Below are positions 1 to 6,654 of a DNA stretch of 33,245 bases, one piece after another. The notes beneath the pieces are model-generated. The model saw only the letters and a list, made by a program, of their open reading frames with translations. It did no database searches and had not been told where the DNA came from. The translations under genes and the position numbers were made by a program. How positions within the stretch are numbered: the first letter of the stretch is position 1; every line of letters begins with the position of its first letter. Source of the stretch: Oscillospiraceae bacterium (GTDB lineage: Bacteria; Bacillota; Clostridia; Oscillospirales; UBA929); NCBI GenBank assembly GCA_031253545.1, contig JAIRWH010000018.1, positions 1-33,245 of the forward strand, in the 5' to 3' direction.

Positions 1-66
1 ATACTTGACAATTTCACGGAATTTTGCCTCTGAAATTTTTGAACGGACAGCATACTTGTTTTCCAT
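1..66 (-). CDS. IS1595-family-like transposase, N-terminal 22 codons only (runs off the window edge)
   Basis: The minus strand from an ATG at position 66 to the window edge reads 22 codons starting MENKYAVRSKISEAKFREI. The 'RSKISEAKFRE' stretch resembles, from memory, the N-terminus of IS1595 (ISXO2-like) transposases, which catalyse cut-and-paste or copying of their element. A Shine-Dalgarno-like AAGGGTGG sits about 8-10 bases upstream of the ATG, which supports this start. Base composition is AT-rich compared with the rest of the window, as expected for a mobile element. The catalytic domain lies outside the window, so intactness cannot be judged. The family assignment rests on a short N-terminal match only. 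Confidence 0.62.
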   Translation of the reverse strand, partial: MENKYAVRSKISEAKFREIVKY

Positions 67-119
67 TGATATATCCACCCTTTTCAGGGTATCATCTTGC
101 CCTCATCTAGTCAAGCCCC
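1..119 (-). mobile_element. End of an insertion sequence (probable IS1595 family), boundary tentative
   Basis: The transposase start lies about 50 bases from a candidate element end at 107-119, where the minus strand reads GGGGCTTGACTAG. A G-rich terminus just upstream of the transposase start is typical of an IS left end. The other end and the target duplication are outside the window, so the boundary is inferred from the position of the G-run and from the open frame that begins immediately beyond it. Confidence 0.4.
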
Positions 120-521
120 ATAGTAATAACCACTGTACCTGGAACCACTCCCGGACCATCCCACACGGGGGATTTTCATGTTTTCGGAATGACCCTTTCT
201 TGGGGTACGATTTCACCGACTGACACGAATAGAACCGTGGCGGGAGCAAAATCAACGATTAGAACAAATGAATATATTAACGAACCTGATGTTGTATCTG
301 AGCCAAAGAACTTTACGGCTTATGTGCATGGAACAATGAAAGACCACAGAAGAGGGGCGACAATACAAAGTGAAATTGATAGATTGGCAAAGAATACTGT
401 CGCTTACATAATATATGCCAATAACAACAATTATACGGTTACCGTAGTACCTAGTTACACCGAGTTTGCCTGTCAAAGTCAAGCCCGAATACTAAAGCGG
501 TTTCATTGTTGCCGGGGTTAA
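120..521 (+). pseudogene. AT-rich ORF remnant, probably the 3' part of a gene cut by the IS; function unknown
   Basis: The frame ending at the TAA at 519-521 is open back to 111, with the preceding stop (TAG, 108-110) lying inside the presumed IS end. The frame is therefore open exactly as far as the element boundary, as expected for a gene truncated by insertion. The first internal ATG (189) has no ribosome binding site. Codons are AT-rich (for example a run of four Asn codons), unlike the GC-rich genes that follow. The last roughly 18 codons look compositionally different and may be past a further break. No domain is recognised. The remaining bases up to 550 hold no gene that I can support and no clear hisS terminator. 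Confidence 0.3.
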
Positions 522-550
522 TATCTGAAATCGGTATCGCGGCATAACGC

Positions 551-1909
551 TCACCGCCTTTCTTGCGGCCGTACTTCTTGTATGCGTACCGCCAGCCCGG
601 AAAAAGGAACGCTTTCTTTTACAAGAGACCCGTTGACCGCGTACTGAAGCACGGCGGTCTGCGTCGTTTCTTCTTCATCTCCTATTACCACGGTGAATTG
701 CGCGTTTTTCCTGTCGGCATATCGGAATTTTTGCTTAATGCTCATGTCTTCCAACAGCACGTCAATCGCGAAACCGCCCTCGCGGAGCTTGCCCGCCAAC
801 TCCATGGCGGCGGCTGAATTGTTTTCGGCAATCGGAACAACGACGGCGTCGGCAGACGTTTTTTGGGCGCAGTCAATTACGCCTATTTCCCGCAGTTTTG
901 AGAATAGGCGCGTAAGCCCTATCGAAATGCCCACGCCGGGCAGCTTTTGGTCTGTGTAGAGTGAGGCGAGGTTATCGAAACGCCCGCCGGAACATATGGA
1001 ACCCAGCTCCGGATAATCGTTGAATCGCGTTTCATAAACCGTGCCGGTGTAGTAGTCAAGCCCGCGCGCGATTGACAAGTCAATCATAAAGCATGACCGG
1101 TCAACACCGTTTTCGGTCATGATTTTTGTTACTGTTTCAAGTTCGCGAACGCCCTCGTCAAACAACGCGTCTTTTATTCCGAGATGGCGCAGGGCGGACA
1201 CAACCTCGGAAACACAGCCCTTAATTGAAATGAAGGAAAGCGTTTTGTCGGCGAGCTCTCGCTCCAGGCCGATTTCCATCAACGCCGATATAAAGCCATC
1301 TTGGCCGTCGAATTTCTCGACCTTATCGATGGTTCTCAGGATGTCGGCCGCCTTATCCGTCATACCGAAGGAACGCAACAGGCCGTTGAGTACTTTTCGG
1401 TTGTTGATGCGGATGGTAAAAGCCCCGAAGTTCAGCTTTTTGAAAAGCCGATAAATGATGCCCGGAATCTCGGCATCATACTTGACGCTGAGGACATTTT
1501 TGCCGATAACGTCAATATCACATTGATAAAACTCGCGAAAGCGTCCTTTTTGCGGGCGCTCTCCCCGGTAAACCTTTGCAATGTGGTAACGCCGGAAAGG
1601 GAATGAGAGGTCGTTGAAATGGTCGGCTACGTAGCGCGCCAACGGAACGGTTAAGTCGAACCTCAAAGCCGTGGACGTGAGGTCTTCCTTGCCCTTGTTG
1701 ACGAAATATATTTGTTTTTCCGTTTCTCCGCCGGCTTTCGCAAACAACGCTTCGCTTCGCTCGATGACAGGCGTGTCGAGCGGAACAAAACCAAAACTGC
1801 GATAGGTCTCCTCTATGACGGATTTGATGCGGTCAAATTCGAGCTGCTCCTCCGGAAGTAACTCCATAAACCCCGGCAACACCGATGTGATTATCGCTTT
1901 CGCGCTCAT
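551..1909 (-). CDS. hisS: Histidyl-tRNA synthetase
   Basis: Cytoplasmic class II aminoacyl-tRNA synthetase that charges tRNA-His with histidine using ATP. The 452-residue length is normal for a bacterial enzyme somewhat longer than E. coli HisRS. Visible motifs: motif 2 (YRGERPQKGRFREFYQ), the HisA signature RGLDYYTGTVYE, and motif 3 (SGGRFDNL followed by GVGISIGLTRL), then an anticodon-binding domain at about 350-440. The ATG at 1909 has GGAGG at 1921-1925, eleven bases away. The gene lies directly downstream of tRNA-His(GTG) and a tRNA-His-like element on the same strand and probably shares their promoter at 2264-2292. Its base composition looks less GC-rich than that of the genes to the right. 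Confidence 0.97.
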   Translation of the reverse strand: MSAKAIITSVLPGFMELLPEEQLEFDRIKSVIEETYRSFGFVPLDTPVIERSEALFAKAGGETEKQIYFVNKGKEDLTSTALRFDLTVPLARYVADHFNDLSFPFRRYHIAKVYRGERPQKGRFREFYQCDIDVIGKNVLSVKYDAEIPGIIYRLFKKLNFGAFTIRINNRKVLNGLLRSFGMTDKAADILRTIDKVEKFDGQDGFISALMEIGLERELADKTLSFISIKGCVSEVVSALRHLGIKDALFDEGVRELETVTKIMTENGVDRSCFMIDLSIARGLDYYTGTVYETRFNDYPELGSICSGGRFDNLASLYTDQKLPGVGISIGLTRLFSKLREIGVIDCAQKTSADAVVVPIAENNSAAAMELAGKLREGGFAIDVLLEDMSIKQKFRYADRKNAQFTVVIGDEEETTQTAVLQYAVNGSLVKESVPFSGLAVRIQEVRPQERR

Positions 1910-1925
1910 AACATTATTTTCCTCC

Positions 1926-2005
1926 GCAATCCAAAAAGTGGGCCGTCCGACCCGCCGCCTCCCGAGTCACAGTCGGGCGCTTTAGCCAACCAAGCTATGG
2001 ATACC
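1926..2005 (-). ncRNA. tRNA-His-like element in the hisS leader (GTG anticodon, abnormal T arm with U-tract)
   Basis: Read on the minus strand, the element has a well-formed D arm (GCTT/AAGC stem with a GGTTGG-containing loop) and a fully paired anticodon arm (CCCGA, loop CTGTGAC, TCGGG) whose anticodon is GTG (His). The T arm is not canonical: no TTCGA is present. The bases at 1940-1953 instead form GGGUC/GGCCC around a GGAC loop, followed by AC and five U (1933-1937), which looks like a weak terminator. An acceptor-like helix of only 5 bp (ATCCA 2002-1998 with TGGAT 1933-1929) closes the structure, next to the hisS ribosome binding site at 1921-1925. It could be a HisRS- or tRNA-related regulatory leader or a decaying tRNA-His duplicate. 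The structural description is read directly; the function is inferred. Confidence 0.5.
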
Positions 2006-2008
2006 ATG

Positions 2009-2086
2009 TGGGGAGGAATACGGGAATCGAACCCGCGACCTTCGGGACCACAATCCGACGCTCTAACCAACTGAGCTAATTCCTCC
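2009..2086 (-). tRNA. tRNA-His (anticodon GTG), CCA encoded
   Basis: On the minus strand an 8-bp acceptor stem (GGAGGAAT/ATTCCTCC) includes the extra G-1:C73 pair that is diagnostic of tRNA-His, and CCA is encoded at 2011-2009. The D stem is GCTC/GAGC and the T arm is GCGGG-TTCGATT-CCCGT. The anticodon loop is TTGTGGT with anticodon GTG. The anticodon stem TCGGA/CCCGA has an A31.C39 mismatch, where the otherwise similar Firmicute tRNA-His has a U at 39. The gene lies about 170 bases downstream of a consensus promoter and just upstream of the tRNA-His-like element and hisS, so it is probably transcribed together with its own synthetase. Confidence 0.95.
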
Positions 2087-2263
2087 ATAACCGCCTTGAA
2101 CAATTTGCCAATCCGCTTTCCGCGCAACCCCCAACCCCGGTGCCGCCTCGCGCGCTCCGTCCGCCATATTGCGACTTAGCGGCAATCTCGCGCTTGCGAC
2201 GGTTGATACGCTTGATTTTGCTCCCCGATGCCGACCGATTGACCTCAACGTGACCCGCAACGT

Positions 2264-2292
2264 ATTATACACTCGCCGTTCGAGGCTGTCAA
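2264..2292 (-). promoter_or_regulatory. Consensus sigma-70-type promoter for tRNA-His / leader / hisS
   Basis: On the minus strand a perfect TTGACA (2292-2287) is separated by 17 bases from a perfect TATAAT (2269-2264). Transcription would start near 2257 and reach tRNA-His after about 170 bases. I see no ORF or clear structured RNA in that 2087-2257 leader. No other minus-strand promoter is evident before hisS. Confidence 0.85.
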
Positions 2293-2366
2293 TACCTCTT
2301 CGCGGCTTCCGGGAGGCTGTCGCTTCCTTTAATAATCGGAGGAAGAGTACAAAAGGGGTTTTCGGA

Positions 2367-2391
2367 AAGAGGGCGATAATACCGCCCTCTT
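2367..2391 (-). terminator. Hairpin terminator downstream of dinB
   Basis: A perfect 9-bp inverted repeat (AAGAGGGCG/CGCCCTCTT) with a 7-base loop. Read on the minus strand, the second arm ends in CTCTTT, followed after a short gap by further pyrimidine-rich sequence. The U-run is short, so efficiency is uncertain. It separates the dinB transcript from the hisS promoter about 75 bases further on. Confidence 0.6.
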
Positions 2392-2397
2392 CATCCG

Positions 2398-2592
2398 TCA
2401 GGCGGCGATGGGGAAGAGGTTGCTGCATACAAAGGATAATACCGATTGAAAACCAATCCGCGAAAAGAGGAGCCCCTGCGTGAAGTATGCGCCGAGGCGG
2501 AACTTGCCGCCCGTTACGGCGACGACGGCTCCCTGCCAATGACGCTGCTTTCGGGTGGGCATCGGCGTTGTCCTCATGGCCGTTGTGGTCAT
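2398..2592 (-). CDS. Possible small hydrophobic protein downstream of dinB (64 aa), unknown
   Basis: An ORF starting 9 bases after the dinB stop with an AGGGAG-like ribosome binding site about 4-5 bases before its ATG. Third codon positions are mostly G or C, like the real genes in this window, and it ends just before the terminator at 2367-2391, so it would fit as the last gene of a dinB transcript. The protein has a basic N-terminus (PTRKQRHW) and a mildly hydrophobic C-terminal half. I recognise no family. A longer overlapping ORF in another frame runs through the hisS promoter and is rejected. It could simply be untranslated 3' sequence. Confidence 0.35.
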   Translation of the reverse strand: MTTTAMRTTPMPTRKQRHWQGAVVAVTGGKFRLGAYFTQGLLFSRIGFQSVLSFVCSNLFPIAA

Positions 2593-2601
2593 ATTGCTCC
2601 C

Positions 2602-3825
2602 TCATGTTTCGCGTATGCCCAAATCATTGTCTATTATGCTGCCTTGTATAACCGCCCCGCCGCCGTGGCGCTCGCGGATAGCGTCAAGCGTTTTCTCCAA
2701 GCGCTCGGCGCGTTCCGCCTGCCGCCTGCCGTCTTCATCGAAGAAGGAGAGTTGGCCGCCTTCCGCTTCGCTTGCGGGCACAAGCCCCTCCCCCGTGACG
2801 GTGAGCGTGCGTATGGGTTTGCCGCTTTGCCAGTGTCTGCCGATTAGTCCCAGCGCGGCGGCGGTGATGTCCGAGGACAGGTGCGTGGGAAAAGGCAGGG
2901 TTTGCCGGCGCGATATGGTGCCGAGGTTTACGTCCTTGATTGCCACCTGCACCACGCGGCACTTCACGCCGTGTTTGCGCAAGCGGCTCGCCACGCTGCC
3001 GGCGAGGTAACTCACGGCAGTCCTTATGTCGCCCTCGCTCTTTAAGTCCCGCTTGAAGGTGAAGCCGTTACCCACGCTCTTTACGTTTTCACCGCCGCCG
3101 ATTGCGGCCACGGGGGAACCGTCCGACCCGTTGGCGTGGGCGTACAGAGTCTCGCCGTGCTTGCCGAAGCGCTTGACAAGCAGCGCGCGCTCCAATGCCG
3201 CTATGTGGCCTATTGTGGTAACGCCCATTTTGGCAAGCGCCTGAGCCGTCTTCTTGCCCACGAATAACAAATCGCCCGCGGGGAGGGGGAACACAAGCTC
3301 GCGCCAGTTTTCGCGGGTAATCGCCGTCACGGCGTCGGGTTTTTTCATATCGCTGCCGAGCTTGGCGAAGGTTTTGTTCCACGATACGCCTATGCTGATT
3401 GTAATGCCGCATTCGCGCTTGACGCGCTGCCGTATGTCGTGGGCGCATCGCATAACGTCCTCGCCGAACGGGCGCAGGCAGCCGGTAACGTCCAAGAACG
3501 ACTCGTCTATGCCGAAACGCTCCACAAGGGGCGTGTATTGCTCATATATGGCGTTGACCTTTTCGCAATATTCGCCGTAAAGCCCGTGGCGCGGCGGCAC
3601 AAGCACAAGGGACGGGCATTTGCGCTTGGCTTGCCATACCGTCTCGGCGGTCTGTACGCCGTGCTTTTTGGCAAGCTCGTTTTTGGCGAGTATTATCCCG
3701 TGGCGCGCCTCGGGGTCGCCCGCCACGGCCATGGGCACAAGTTTGAGCCGCGGGGCGAAGACTTCCTCCACGCTCGCGTAGAAACTGTTGCAGTCGCAAT
3801 GGAGTATGTGGCGGTCATGTGGCAC
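2602..3825 (-). CDS. dinB: DNA polymerase IV (Y-family translesion polymerase)
   Basis: Error-prone polymerase that copies past damaged bases. From the GTG at 3825 the protein has 407 residues, normal for the family. Metal-binding and active-site signatures are DCNSFYASVE (Asp11, with Phe15/Tyr16 in the steric-gate position) and FGIDESFLDV (Asp107/Glu108). A helix-hairpin-helix region (LLFVGKKTAQALAKMG) and the little-finger domain follow. QLSFF near the C-terminus matches the beta-clamp binding motif. The frame is open 53 codons further upstream, but GGGAGGTG lies 6 bases before GTG 3825 and the promoter at 3860-3888 falls inside the longer version, so the short start is chosen. It is transcribed divergently from the histidine kinase gene. 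Confidence 0.95.
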   Translation of the reverse strand: MPHDRHILHCDCNSFYASVEEVFAPRLKLVPMAVAGDPEARHGIILAKNELAKKHGVQTAETVWQAKRKCPSLVLVPPRHGLYGEYCEKVNAIYEQYTPLVERFGIDESFLDVTGCLRPFGEDVMRCAHDIRQRVKRECGITISIGVSWNKTFAKLGSDMKKPDAVTAITRENWRELVFPLPAGDLLFVGKKTAQALAKMGVTTIGHIAALERALLVKRFGKHGETLYAHANGSDGSPVAAIGGGENVKSVGNGFTFKRDLKSEGDIRTAVSYLAGSVASRLRKHGVKCRVVQVAIKDVNLGTISRRQTLPFPTHLSSDITAAALGLIGRHWQSGKPIRTLTVTGEGLVPASEAEGGQLSFFDEDGRRQAERAERLEKTLDAIRERHGGGAVIQGSIIDNDLGIRET

Positions 3826-3859
3826 GGGCTTCACCTCCCGGCTGCGCGGCTGCGAGGTA

Positions 3860-3888
3860 ATTATACCACCTGTCGGCGCGCCGGGCAA
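3860..3888 (-). promoter_or_regulatory. Promoter of dinB
   Basis: On the minus strand TTGCCC (3888-3883), a 17-base spacer and a perfect TATAAT (3865-3860). The start would be about 28 bases before the dinB GTG. I see no obvious LexA-type box (GAACN4GTTC) around it. The remaining divergent intergenic sequence, about 3890-4067, holds no gene that I can support. Confidence 0.65.
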
Positions 3889-4067
3889 TGCGGCGAAAGC
3901 CGCTACGGAAAGCACGGGAAAAAGGGATAAAAGCATACCTTCTTCCCATGTTATACAATGACCCCGAAAGGAGTTGCTCGCCACGCGCGCCTACGGCAAT
4001 GTACGGGTATCCGTCTTGGGCTTCCGATAATCCGCGTGTTTGCCGCGCCGACGAGGCAATGCCCCCC

Positions 4068-4097
4068 TTGACCGGCGGGCTCGGAGGGTGGTATACT
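4068..4097 (+). promoter_or_regulatory. Promoter of the hybrid histidine kinase gene
   Basis: TTGACC (4068-4073), an 18-base spacer and TATACT (4092-4097), close to the sigma-70-type consensus. The expected start near 4104 leaves about 55 bases of leader before the GTG at 4159, which carries a strong GGAGGAGGT ribosome binding site. Confidence 0.65.
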
Positions 4098-4158
4098 GAT
4101 AACATGGGCATAAATGGGCGGGGCGGTGCGGACACACCCCCGGAGGAGGTGCGGCGAA

Positions 4159-6654
4159 GTGGAAGGCGCGGTGGAAACGGCGCGCGCGGGCGATGTGCTC
4201 CGCGAGCGTATGGCGGATATGCTTAAAAGCTGCCCGATATGCTGCCTGATGTTTGACGCCGCGGGCCGCATACTCGCCATAAACGACGAAGCGGCGGAGA
4301 TATTCGGAGAAAGCGTTGTAAACACGCACATGGTGGACTTTGTGAGTGCCCATTCCACCGAATATCAACCCGACGGCCGCGAATCGGACGAAAAGGCGGC
4401 GCTGATATTCGAGAAAATCTTCGGCAGCGACTCCTTCGATTTGTCGTTTGAATGGCTGCACACCGGGCGGTTTGGTGTGATTATGCCCATGGAAGTACAC
4501 ATAAAAAAGGCGCGCTACAGCGACGGGGACGTGTGCTTCGCTTACTATTACAACCTGCACAATGTGGAAACCATGCGCGAGGACGTGCGCCGCATGAACG
4601 ATATGCTCGGCGCGCGCCTTTTGCGCGAGGAACTGATTACCGGCATAACCAAGGCCTTCCTTGCGGAAAACGTCGGTACCGAGGCCATCGGCGGCGCGCT
4701 GGAGCGGCTCGGCACATTTTTGCAGGCGCAGGACGCCGCCGTTATCCCGCTCGGCAACGAGGAAGACACCGAGGAATACCTTTGGAACGACGGCAGCGGC
4801 AGGGCGCGGGGAGCGCGGGGGTTGCGGGGCTTAATCGGCGAGAACTATGTGGCGACGCGCGACGGGCGCGACGATACGCGCGTATACCGCCGGGGGGACT
4901 CGTCGTTTATATGGTCGCCCGTGCATTTCGAGGGCAGGCTTTGGGGTGTGCTGAGCGTGGCTCGGCATGGCGGCGGGCGCGAATGGAGCGAAGACGACAT
5001 ACGGCTGACGGCGCAAGTGGCGGACGCGGTGGCGGGCGCGGTGGAACGCGAGCTGTACAGCCGCCAGCGTATGCAGGCCTTAAAGCAAGCCATCGAGGCA
5101 AGCCACGCCAAGAGCAACTTCCTTTCCAATATGTCGCACGAGATGCGCACGCCCATCAACGCCATCATCGGCATGGCCTCCATCGGCAAGGCATCCGACA
5201 GCGCCGAGCGCAAGGACTACGCCCTCGCGAAGATTGAGGAAGCGTCGGCGCATTTGCTCGGCGTGATAAACGATGTGCTTGATATTGCCAAAATCGAGGC
5301 CAACAAATTGGAATTGACGGCGGAGAGCTTTTCGCTGAGGCAGACGCTGAAAAAGTGCATTGACGTGGTGAGTTTTCGCCTCAACGAAAAGCGGCAGGAG
5401 TTTTGTTTCAACTACGACGTGCGCCTGCCCGCCGTGTTGGTGGGCGACAGCCAGCGGCTCGCGCAGGTGGTGATAAACTTGCTGTCCAACGCCGTGAAGT
5501 TTACGCCGGAAGAAGGCGCGGTGTGTATGAACGCCATGCTCGGCGACGAGAGCGGCGGTATGGCCACCGTGATATTGGAGGTTACGGACAGCGGGGTGGG
5601 GATACAGCCCGACCGGCTGCCGCTGCTGTTTAAGGCGTTTGAGCAAGCGGACAGCGGCATCTCCCGCAAGTATGGCGGCACAGGGCTTGGGCTTACCATT
5701 TCCAAGCGGATTATAGACCTTATGGACGGCGATATTGCCGTGGAGTCGGAGCCGGGAAAGGGCTCGAAGTTTATCGTCACGTTTAAGGCCGCCGTGGGGG
5801 ACGCGCCCGACGACGCGGGGCTCGACCCGTCTGTGGACTGGGAGAAGCTGCGGATAATGGTTACGGACGATTCCCCCACAATACTGCGGTTTTTCTCCGT
5901 GCTGTTTTCGCATATAGGCTGCGTGTGCGACACGGTCTCCGACGGCGAGAGCGCGCTGGAGCTGATGAAGCGGAGCGAACCCTATGACTTCTGCTTCATA
6001 GACCGCCTGCTGCCCGGCATAGACGGCATAGAGCTGCTGCGGCAAATCAACGAGCGCTGCCCCGAAAAAAGAGGGTTTGCCGTGCTCATATCCGCCACAA
6101 ACTTGCAGCAATTTCGCGAAGAGGCGCTAAACGCCGGGGCGAGCGGTTTTTTGCAAAAGCCCATATATTCCTCGGACGTTATTTCCTGTATGTGCGAATG
6201 TATAGGGGTGGACGGCATCAAGCGGCACGGCGGGCAGCAGCTTGTGCCGGGGGAGTTTTGCGGCAGGCGCATTTTGCTTGCCGAAGACATCGAGATAAAC
6301 AGGGAAATCCTCTGCTCGCTGCTGGAAAGCTCCGGCGCGGAGATAGACTGCGCCGCAAACGGCATAGAGGCGCTGAGTATGCTCGAGCGCAACCCCGACA
6401 AATACGACCTCGTGTTTATGGACGTGCAGATGCCGGAGATGGACGGTTTGGAAACCACGCGGCGCATACGCCGCAACCCCCGCCACAGCGACTTGCCGAT
6501 TGTGGCGATGACCGCCAACGTGTTCAAAGACGACGTGGACAGGTGTATACAGGCGGGCATGGACGACCACACGGGCAAACCTCTCAACATAGACGACGTG
6601 GTGCGCCTCATACGCGCCCACAACAAAAACCGGCGCGGATACGCGCAGGGCTGA
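4159..6654 (+). CDS. Hybrid sensor histidine kinase, PAS-GAF-HisKA-HATPase-REC-REC
   Basis: Soluble-looking sensor kinase of about 831 residues; no transmembrane segment is evident, so a cytoplasmic signal is likely. A PAS domain occupies about 20-130 (CCLMFDAAGRILAINDEAAEIFG), then a GAF-like domain at about 155-310. The H-box is SNMSHEMRTPINAIIGM with phospho-acceptor His327. The ATPase domain has an N-box (NLLSNAVKF) and G-boxes (DSGVGI, GGTGLGLTI). Two receiver domains follow: REC1 with Asp615 (CFIDRLLPGIDG) and REC2 with Asp755 (FMDVQMPEMDG). There is no Hpt or DNA-binding output domain. GTG 4159 is chosen because GGAGGAGGT lies 8 bases before it; the ATG at 4114 is only about 10 bases from the promoter start. 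The partner protein is not in the window, and control of the following PTS operon is only a guess. Confidence 0.92.
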   Translation: MEGAVETARAGDVLRERMADMLKSCPICCLMFDAAGRILAINDEAAEIFGESVVNTHMVDFVSAHSTEYQPDGRESDEKAALIFEKIFGSDSFDLSFEWLHTGRFGVIMPMEVHIKKARYSDGDVCFAYYYNLHNVETMREDVRRMNDMLGARLLREELITGITKAFLAENVGTEAIGGALERLGTFLQAQDAAVIPLGNEEDTEEYLWNDGSGRARGARGLRGLIGENYVATRDGRDDTRVYRRGDSSFIWSPVHFEGRLWGVLSVARHGGGREWSEDDIRLTAQVADAVAGAVERELYSRQRMQALKQAIEASHAKSNFLSNMSHEMRTPINAIIGMASIGKASDSAERKDYALAKIEEASAHLLGVINDVLDIAKIEANKLELTAESFSLRQTLKKCIDVVSFRLNEKRQEFCFNYDVRLPAVLVGDSQRLAQVVINLLSNAVKFTPEEGAVCMNAMLGDESGGMATVILEVTDSGVGIQPDRLPLLFKAFEQADSGISRKYGGTGLGLTISKRIIDLMDGDIAVESEPGKGSKFIVTFKAAVGDAPDDAGLDPSVDWEKLRIMVTDDSPTILRFFSVLFSHIGCVCDTVSDGESALELMKRSEPYDFCFIDRLLPGIDGIELLRQINERCPEKRGFAVLISATNLQQFREEALNAGASGFLQKPIYSSDVISCMCECIGVDGIKRHGGQQLVPGEFCGRRILLAEDIEINREILCSLLESSGAEIDCAANGIEALSMLERNPDKYDLVFMDVQMPEMDGLETTRRIRRNPRHSDLPIVAMTANVFKDDVDRCIQAGMDDHTGKPLNIDDVVRLIRAHNKNRRGYAQG

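What the first reader, a model, noticed from the sequence alone, without database searches (positions are those of the whole stretch)
1926..2086. tRNA-His and a tRNA-His-like leader sit directly in front of hisS
From a consensus promoter the minus strand reads tRNA-His(GTG), three bases after its CCA a second element with an intact D arm and a perfectly paired anticodon arm also carrying GTG, then an abnormal T arm that forms a small hairpin followed by five U, then the hisS ribosome binding site. The D stem has a changed but still paired T13-A22 (C13-G22 in the real tRNA), which hints at preserved structure. HisRS binding to this mimic could control its own synthesis, like the tRNA-like operator of E. 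coli thrS, or the U-tract hairpin could act as an attenuator. The simpler alternative is a decaying tandem copy.
Basis: partly seen in the sequence, partly recalled or inferred. Interest (0 to 1): 0.72.

Follow-up and report, generated by a model that had tools for sequence, protein, structure and literature searches.

The report
Degenerate tRNA-His before a transferred hisS
A bacterium carries a borrowed histidyl-tRNA synthetase gene with its only tRNA-His directly in front of it, and between the two lies a second, damaged tRNA-His whose remaining shape might let the enzyme control its own message, although it may equally be a leftover.

Summary
The minus strand carries a perfect promoter, a complete tRNA-His (2086-2009, the genome's only one), 3 nt later a tRNA-His-derived element (2005-1926), then the hisS ribosome-binding site. 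A tRNA-His covariance model scores the element 32.8 bits (E 5e-5 in 204 kb); ARAGORN and Rfam's cut-off miss it. It keeps G-1, a fully paired D stem, a fully paired anticodon stem with GUG, five acceptor pairs and C73. It lost the T-loop motif, A14 and CCA and gained U4; the SD sits where CCA would be.

New: this HisRS is foreign to its family. It forms a fully supported clade with two Spirochaetia and two Clostridia genomes. Among about 150 hisS loci only the window and those spirochaetes have tRNA-His just upstream, so synthetase and tRNA probably moved as a pair. The element is not a neutrally decaying copy of its neighbour (p about 0.005); it is nearer ordinary clostridial tRNA-His. Relic and thrS-like HisRS operator cannot be separated: no close relative exists, and constraint after loss of tRNA function is not significant. 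I favour a relic inside a co-transferred pair (0.52), operator second (0.30).

The parts
2264..2292 (-). sigma-70 promoter TTGACA-17-TATAAT, 12 of 12 matches
   Evidence: 0.4 promoter-like sites expected by chance in the 800-base stretch
2009..2086 (-). complete tRNA-His(GTG) with encoded G-1, C73 and CCA; only tRNA-His in the genome
1926..2005 (-). tRNA-His-derived element from G-1 to C73 equivalent, with U4 insert and broken T loop
1979..1995 (-). D arm of the element, 4 of 4 pairs, T13-A22, A14 changed to G
1961..1977 (-). anticodon arm of the element, 5 of 5 pairs, loop CTGTGAC with GTG
1934..1955 (-). abnormal T arm (8-base loop; alternative hairpin GGGTC-GGAC-GGCCC) followed by a U tract; weak terminator-like site
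1927..1933 (-). acceptor 3' strand TGGATTG, pairs 5 of 7 with GTATCCA 2004-1998
   Evidence: chance about 0.03; pair probabilities 0.5-0.9
1921..1925 (-). GGAGG Shine-Dalgarno sequence of hisS, at the place of the CCA end
551..1909 (-). hisS, histidyl-tRNA synthetase, 452 aa, foreign to its family

Best explanation
This is a horizontally acquired synthetase/tRNA pair: a foreign HisRS gene with a tRNA-His gene just upstream, probably transcribed together, so that enzyme and substrate arrive and are expressed together. The element between them is a second tRNA-His gene, of ordinary clostridial type, that lost tRNA function (T loop, A14, CCA, U4 insertion) and now lies in the hisS 5' leader. Shown: the sequence, the linkage in a second lineage, the foreign HisRS, the tRNA-His origin of the element. 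Inferred: co-transcription, co-transfer, and that the element is mainly a relic whose surviving arms date from its time as a tRNA.
For: Element recognised by a tRNA-His model and nearest to clostridial tRNA-His, 9 of 42 differences. HisRS clade window + two Spirochaetia + two Clostridia at 100/100. tRNA-His directly before hisS only in the window and the spirochaetes among about 150 loci. Family members carry another HisRS and other tRNA-His acceptor stems. hisS GC 0.516 and GC3 0.62 against 0.61 and 0.75-0.79 for the contig and other genes. Several tRNA invariants lost.
Against: All D and anticodon pairs, GUG, G-1, five acceptor pairs and C73 survive, more than a long-dead gene would keep. 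The two Clostridia of the clade lack the linkage, and one origin of the linkage is only marginally allowed (p-AU 0.053).
Confidence: 0.52

Rival explanations
1. HisRS operator by tRNA mimicry. HisRS in excess of its tRNA binds the GUG anticodon arm (and perhaps the G-1/C73 end) of the leader element and covers the adjacent GGAGG, blocking translation of hisS; free tRNA-His, made from the same transcript, competes and relieves the block.
For: All bacterial His identity bases (G-1, C73, GUG; PMC9976931) are kept, D and anticodon stems are intact with paired double changes, the lowest-energy fold is a four-way cloverleaf with the SD next to it, precedents thrS and yeast HisRS.
Against: No second example; stability ordinary (z 0.70); cloverleaf shape in 5% of shuffles; pairs 1-72 and 2-71 mismatched and U4 breaks acceptor/T stacking; constraint after loss of tRNA function not significant.
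Confidence: 0.3
2. Transcription attenuator or punctuation: the T-arm hairpin plus U5 ends part of the transcripts, so that tRNA-His is made in excess over hisS mRNA.
For: In the spirochaetes a strong hairpin with U8 lies at the same place, between tRNA-His and the hisS SD (-12.1 kcal/mol). Window hairpin GGGTCGGACGGCCC-AC-TTTTT.
Against: Only 5 pairs, -6.5 kcal/mol, not in excess over chance; no competing antiterminator among the low-energy folds.
Confidence: 0.12
3. Neutrally decaying tandem copy of the neighbouring tRNA-His.
For: Adjacent, 3 nt apart, same anticodon.
Against: 14 of 42 differences with three paired double changes, chance of both stems surviving 0.0045; 6 of 8 positions of the acceptor 5' strand differ; nearer to other clostridial tRNA-His.
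Confidence: 0.04

Closest known systems
E. coli thrS operator
   Same: synthetase mRNA leader with an anticodon-arm mimic just before the SD (PMC9976931)
   Different: here the element is recognisably a whole former tRNA gene, lies behind the real tRNA gene, and binding is untested; thrS lacks an acceptor-arm equivalent
Yeast HisRS mRNA anticodon mimic
   Same: HisRS, GUG in a stem-loop of its own mRNA, relieved by tRNA-His (PMC6542539)
   Different: in yeast the element is inside the coding region and is only an anticodon-like stem-loop
tRNA-His-like structure proposed by Ames and colleagues for a histidine leader
   Same: idea that a leader resembles tRNA-His (cited in PMC6542539)
   Different: as I recall it concerns the his operon attenuator, not a hisS leader, and not a former tRNA gene
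T-box leader
   Same: tRNA-linked control of synthetase genes in Firmicutes
   Different: no T-box match in the window leader; here the leader resembles the tRNA instead of binding it
Transferred HisRS with matching tRNA-His (Ardell and Andersson 2006, cited in PMC9976931)
   Same: lateral transfer of HisRS with a matching change in tRNA-His
   Different: here the tRNA gene is physically linked to hisS; the cited paper itself was not available

Membership tests
functional tRNA-His (second gene) | T loop TTCRA, 7-base T loop, A14, CCA, full acceptor stem | tested here: not met
   8-base loop TCGGACGG, G14, no CCA, acceptor 5 of 7 with U4 insert; not called by ARAGORN, below Rfam cut-off
tRNA-His-derived sequence | significant match to a tRNA-His model, GUG, G-1 | tested here: met
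   32.8 bits, E 4.7e-5; G-1 and GUG
thrS-type tRNA-mimic operator | anticodon-like arm of the cognate tRNA upstream of the SD | tested here: met
   CCCGA-CTGTGAC-TCGGG at 1977-1961, SD at 1925-1921
thrS-type tRNA-mimic operator | covariation of the mimic across relatives | tested here: inconclusive
   no second example found in about 150 hisS loci
thrS-type tRNA-mimic operator | synthetase binds the leader and competes with the ribosome | not testable with these tools
   needs binding and reporter assays
T-box leader | match to RF00230 | tested here: not met
   no match in window 1-6000 at E up to 10
intrinsic terminator | stable GC-rich hairpin followed by a U tract | tested here: inconclusive
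   5 pairs, -6.5 kcal/mol, U5; not in excess over chance
co-transferred HisRS/tRNA-His pair | HisRS foreign to the lineage | tested here: met
   other HisRS in the rest of the family, clade with spirochaetes 100/100, lower GC3
co-transferred HisRS/tRNA-His pair | same tRNA linkage in related foreign copies, of one origin | tested here: inconclusive
   present in both spirochaetes, absent in the two Clostridia of the clade; p-AU 0.053 for one clade of linked copies

The most novel reading that the evidence does not exclude
A displaced tRNA-His gene has been turned into a whole-cloverleaf operator for HisRS, its CCA end replaced by the Shine-Dalgarno site, so that a transferred HisRS/tRNA-His pair carries its own translational feedback.
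Probability: 0.27. Interest if true: 0.8.

Novelty: new variant of a known kind. Interest (0 to 1): 0.45.

Why it matters
Synthetase genes are often replaced by transfer; a gene order in which the tRNA comes along would explain how a foreign HisRS is accepted. If the element is an operator, it would show directly how a tRNA gene becomes a regulatory mimic and would be a bacterial HisRS counterpart of the thrS operator.

Tried and rejected
T-box or other Rfam leader: none. A third tRNA remnant in the 170 nt before the tRNA: none with filters off, and that stretch has no unusual fold (z 1.35). Misbinned contig: rejected by composition, and the genome would otherwise lack any HisRS and tRNA-His. 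Trace in the only other genome of the genus, G001: it has another HisRS and no tRNA-His in its assembly. Synteny through dinB: copies 51-55% identical in only 3 other family members, not informative. Plasmids and viral contigs: no close HisRS. Extra stability of the leader fold: none (z 0.70). An alternative pairing of the anticodon arm with the T hairpin as antiterminator: not among the low-energy folds. Two searches for papers on synthetase leaders with tRNA pseudogenes or tRNA-His next to hisS gave nothing specific.

Full report
Observation. The minus strand reads: perfect promoter TTGACA-17-TATAAT (2292-2264), about 170 nt without unusual structure, tRNA-His(GTG) 2086-2009 with G-1, C73 and CCA, three bases, the tRNA-like element, GGAGG, and hisS at 1909-551 (TIGR00442). 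The element is not called by ARAGORN and is below Rfam's threshold (20.9 against 29 bits). A model built from 18 tRNA-His genes (16 of the same order, one spirochaete copy, and the window's real tRNA-His) finds it at 32.8 bits, E 4.7e-5 in 204 kb.

Anatomy. Read as a tRNA it has G-1 (2005), acceptor GTATCCA, U8, a 4/4 D stem with T13-A22, G18 G19, a 5/5 anticodon stem with U33 and GUG, a T arm with an 8-base loop lacking TTCRA, four inserted T, then TGGATTG, which pairs with acceptor positions 3-7, and C73. In place of CCA comes GGA, the start of the Shine-Dalgarno sequence. The acceptor pairing has a chance of about 0.03 in dinucleotide shuffles. The predicted minimum-energy fold is a four-way cloverleaf with the SD mostly unpaired; 5% of shuffles give a comparable shape, and overall stability is ordinary (z 0.70). 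The D arm is predicted in a shifted register, which also happens for the real tRNA.

Origin of the element. Against the neighbouring tRNA-His it differs at 14 of 42 positions (U8 to 48-49), with three pairs changed on both sides; against the nearest clostridial tRNA-His (L199, genome G023) at 9 of 42, with two such pairs. Random change of the same amount leaves both stems paired in 0.45% and 3.3% of simulations. So it is not a neutrally decaying copy of its neighbour. This does not show present function: a tRNA that diverged while working and broke later gives the same pattern. Counting only changes that a tRNA could hardly tolerate (about 6 to 10 events), their absence from the 18 D- and anticodon-stem bases has a chance of roughly 0.1 to 0.2 (own arithmetic), which is not significant.

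The pair. The genome (G000, 97% complete) has one HisRS and one tRNA-His. The other genomes of its family carry a different HisRS, about 25-36% identical over the matched stretches, and where a tRNA-His was recovered it has another acceptor stem. hisS is AT-richer than the contig, while the contig belongs to the genome by composition. The closest HisRS proteins, 55-58% identical, are those of Spirochaetia bacterium MS499-44 and one more spirochaete genome. With two Clostridia MAGs (L062, L130) they form one clade with the window at 100/100 support. [quoted passage not shown] that MS499-44 did too is inferred from the code. Both spirochaetes have tRNA-His directly before hisS, followed by a strong terminator, and in one it is the only tRNA-His found. 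The two Clostridia of the clade do not: their tRNA-His lies in ordinary tRNA clusters. Among about 150 hisS loci, a few of them cut short upstream, no other has a tRNA-His next to it. This favours tRNA-His and hisS moving as a pair, though two separate origins of the linkage are not excluded (p-AU 0.053).

Mechanism. I favour a co-transferred, probably co-transcribed pair with a degenerate extra tRNA-His left in the leader (0.52). The operator reading (0.30) has good logic: all bacterial histidine identity bases, G-1, C73 and GUG, are kept (identity: PMC9976931), the SD sits at the CCA position, and thrS in E. coli and HisRS mRNA in yeast (PMC6542539) are precedents. It lacks a second example and any binding data. 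The terminator reading (0.12) rests on the spirochaete parallel, but the window's hairpin is weak.

Verdict. The feature is real and somewhat better preserved than first described; regulation is open. It is a new variant of a known kind if it is an operator, and a relic in a transferred pair if not.

Noticed in passing
L157 2935-3008 and L158 2934-3008 (Spirochaetia genomes G057, G058): The hisS-linked tRNA-His has C, not G, at position -1 opposite C73, although in G058 it is the only tRNA-His found; how histidine identity is met there (other HisRS rules, or a Thg1-like enzyme) is open.
   Followed up: partly
L150 about 1232-1715 (G057): Tight cluster Ser-Lys-Phe-Asp-His-Ile of tRNA genes with very short spacers, including a second, unusual tRNA-His; may be a tRNA array of a mobile element.
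   Followed up: no
window 1-550: The stretch after hisS to the contig end has only 42% GC against 61% for the rest; possibly more transferred DNA.
   Followed up: no
window 2009-2086: The real tRNA-His has an A31.C39 mismatch in its anticodon stem.
   Followed up: no
window 1909-1917: A two-codon frame ATG TTA TGA lies 6 nt after the SD and overlaps the hisS start codon; it could be a minimal upstream frame or nothing.
   Followed up: no
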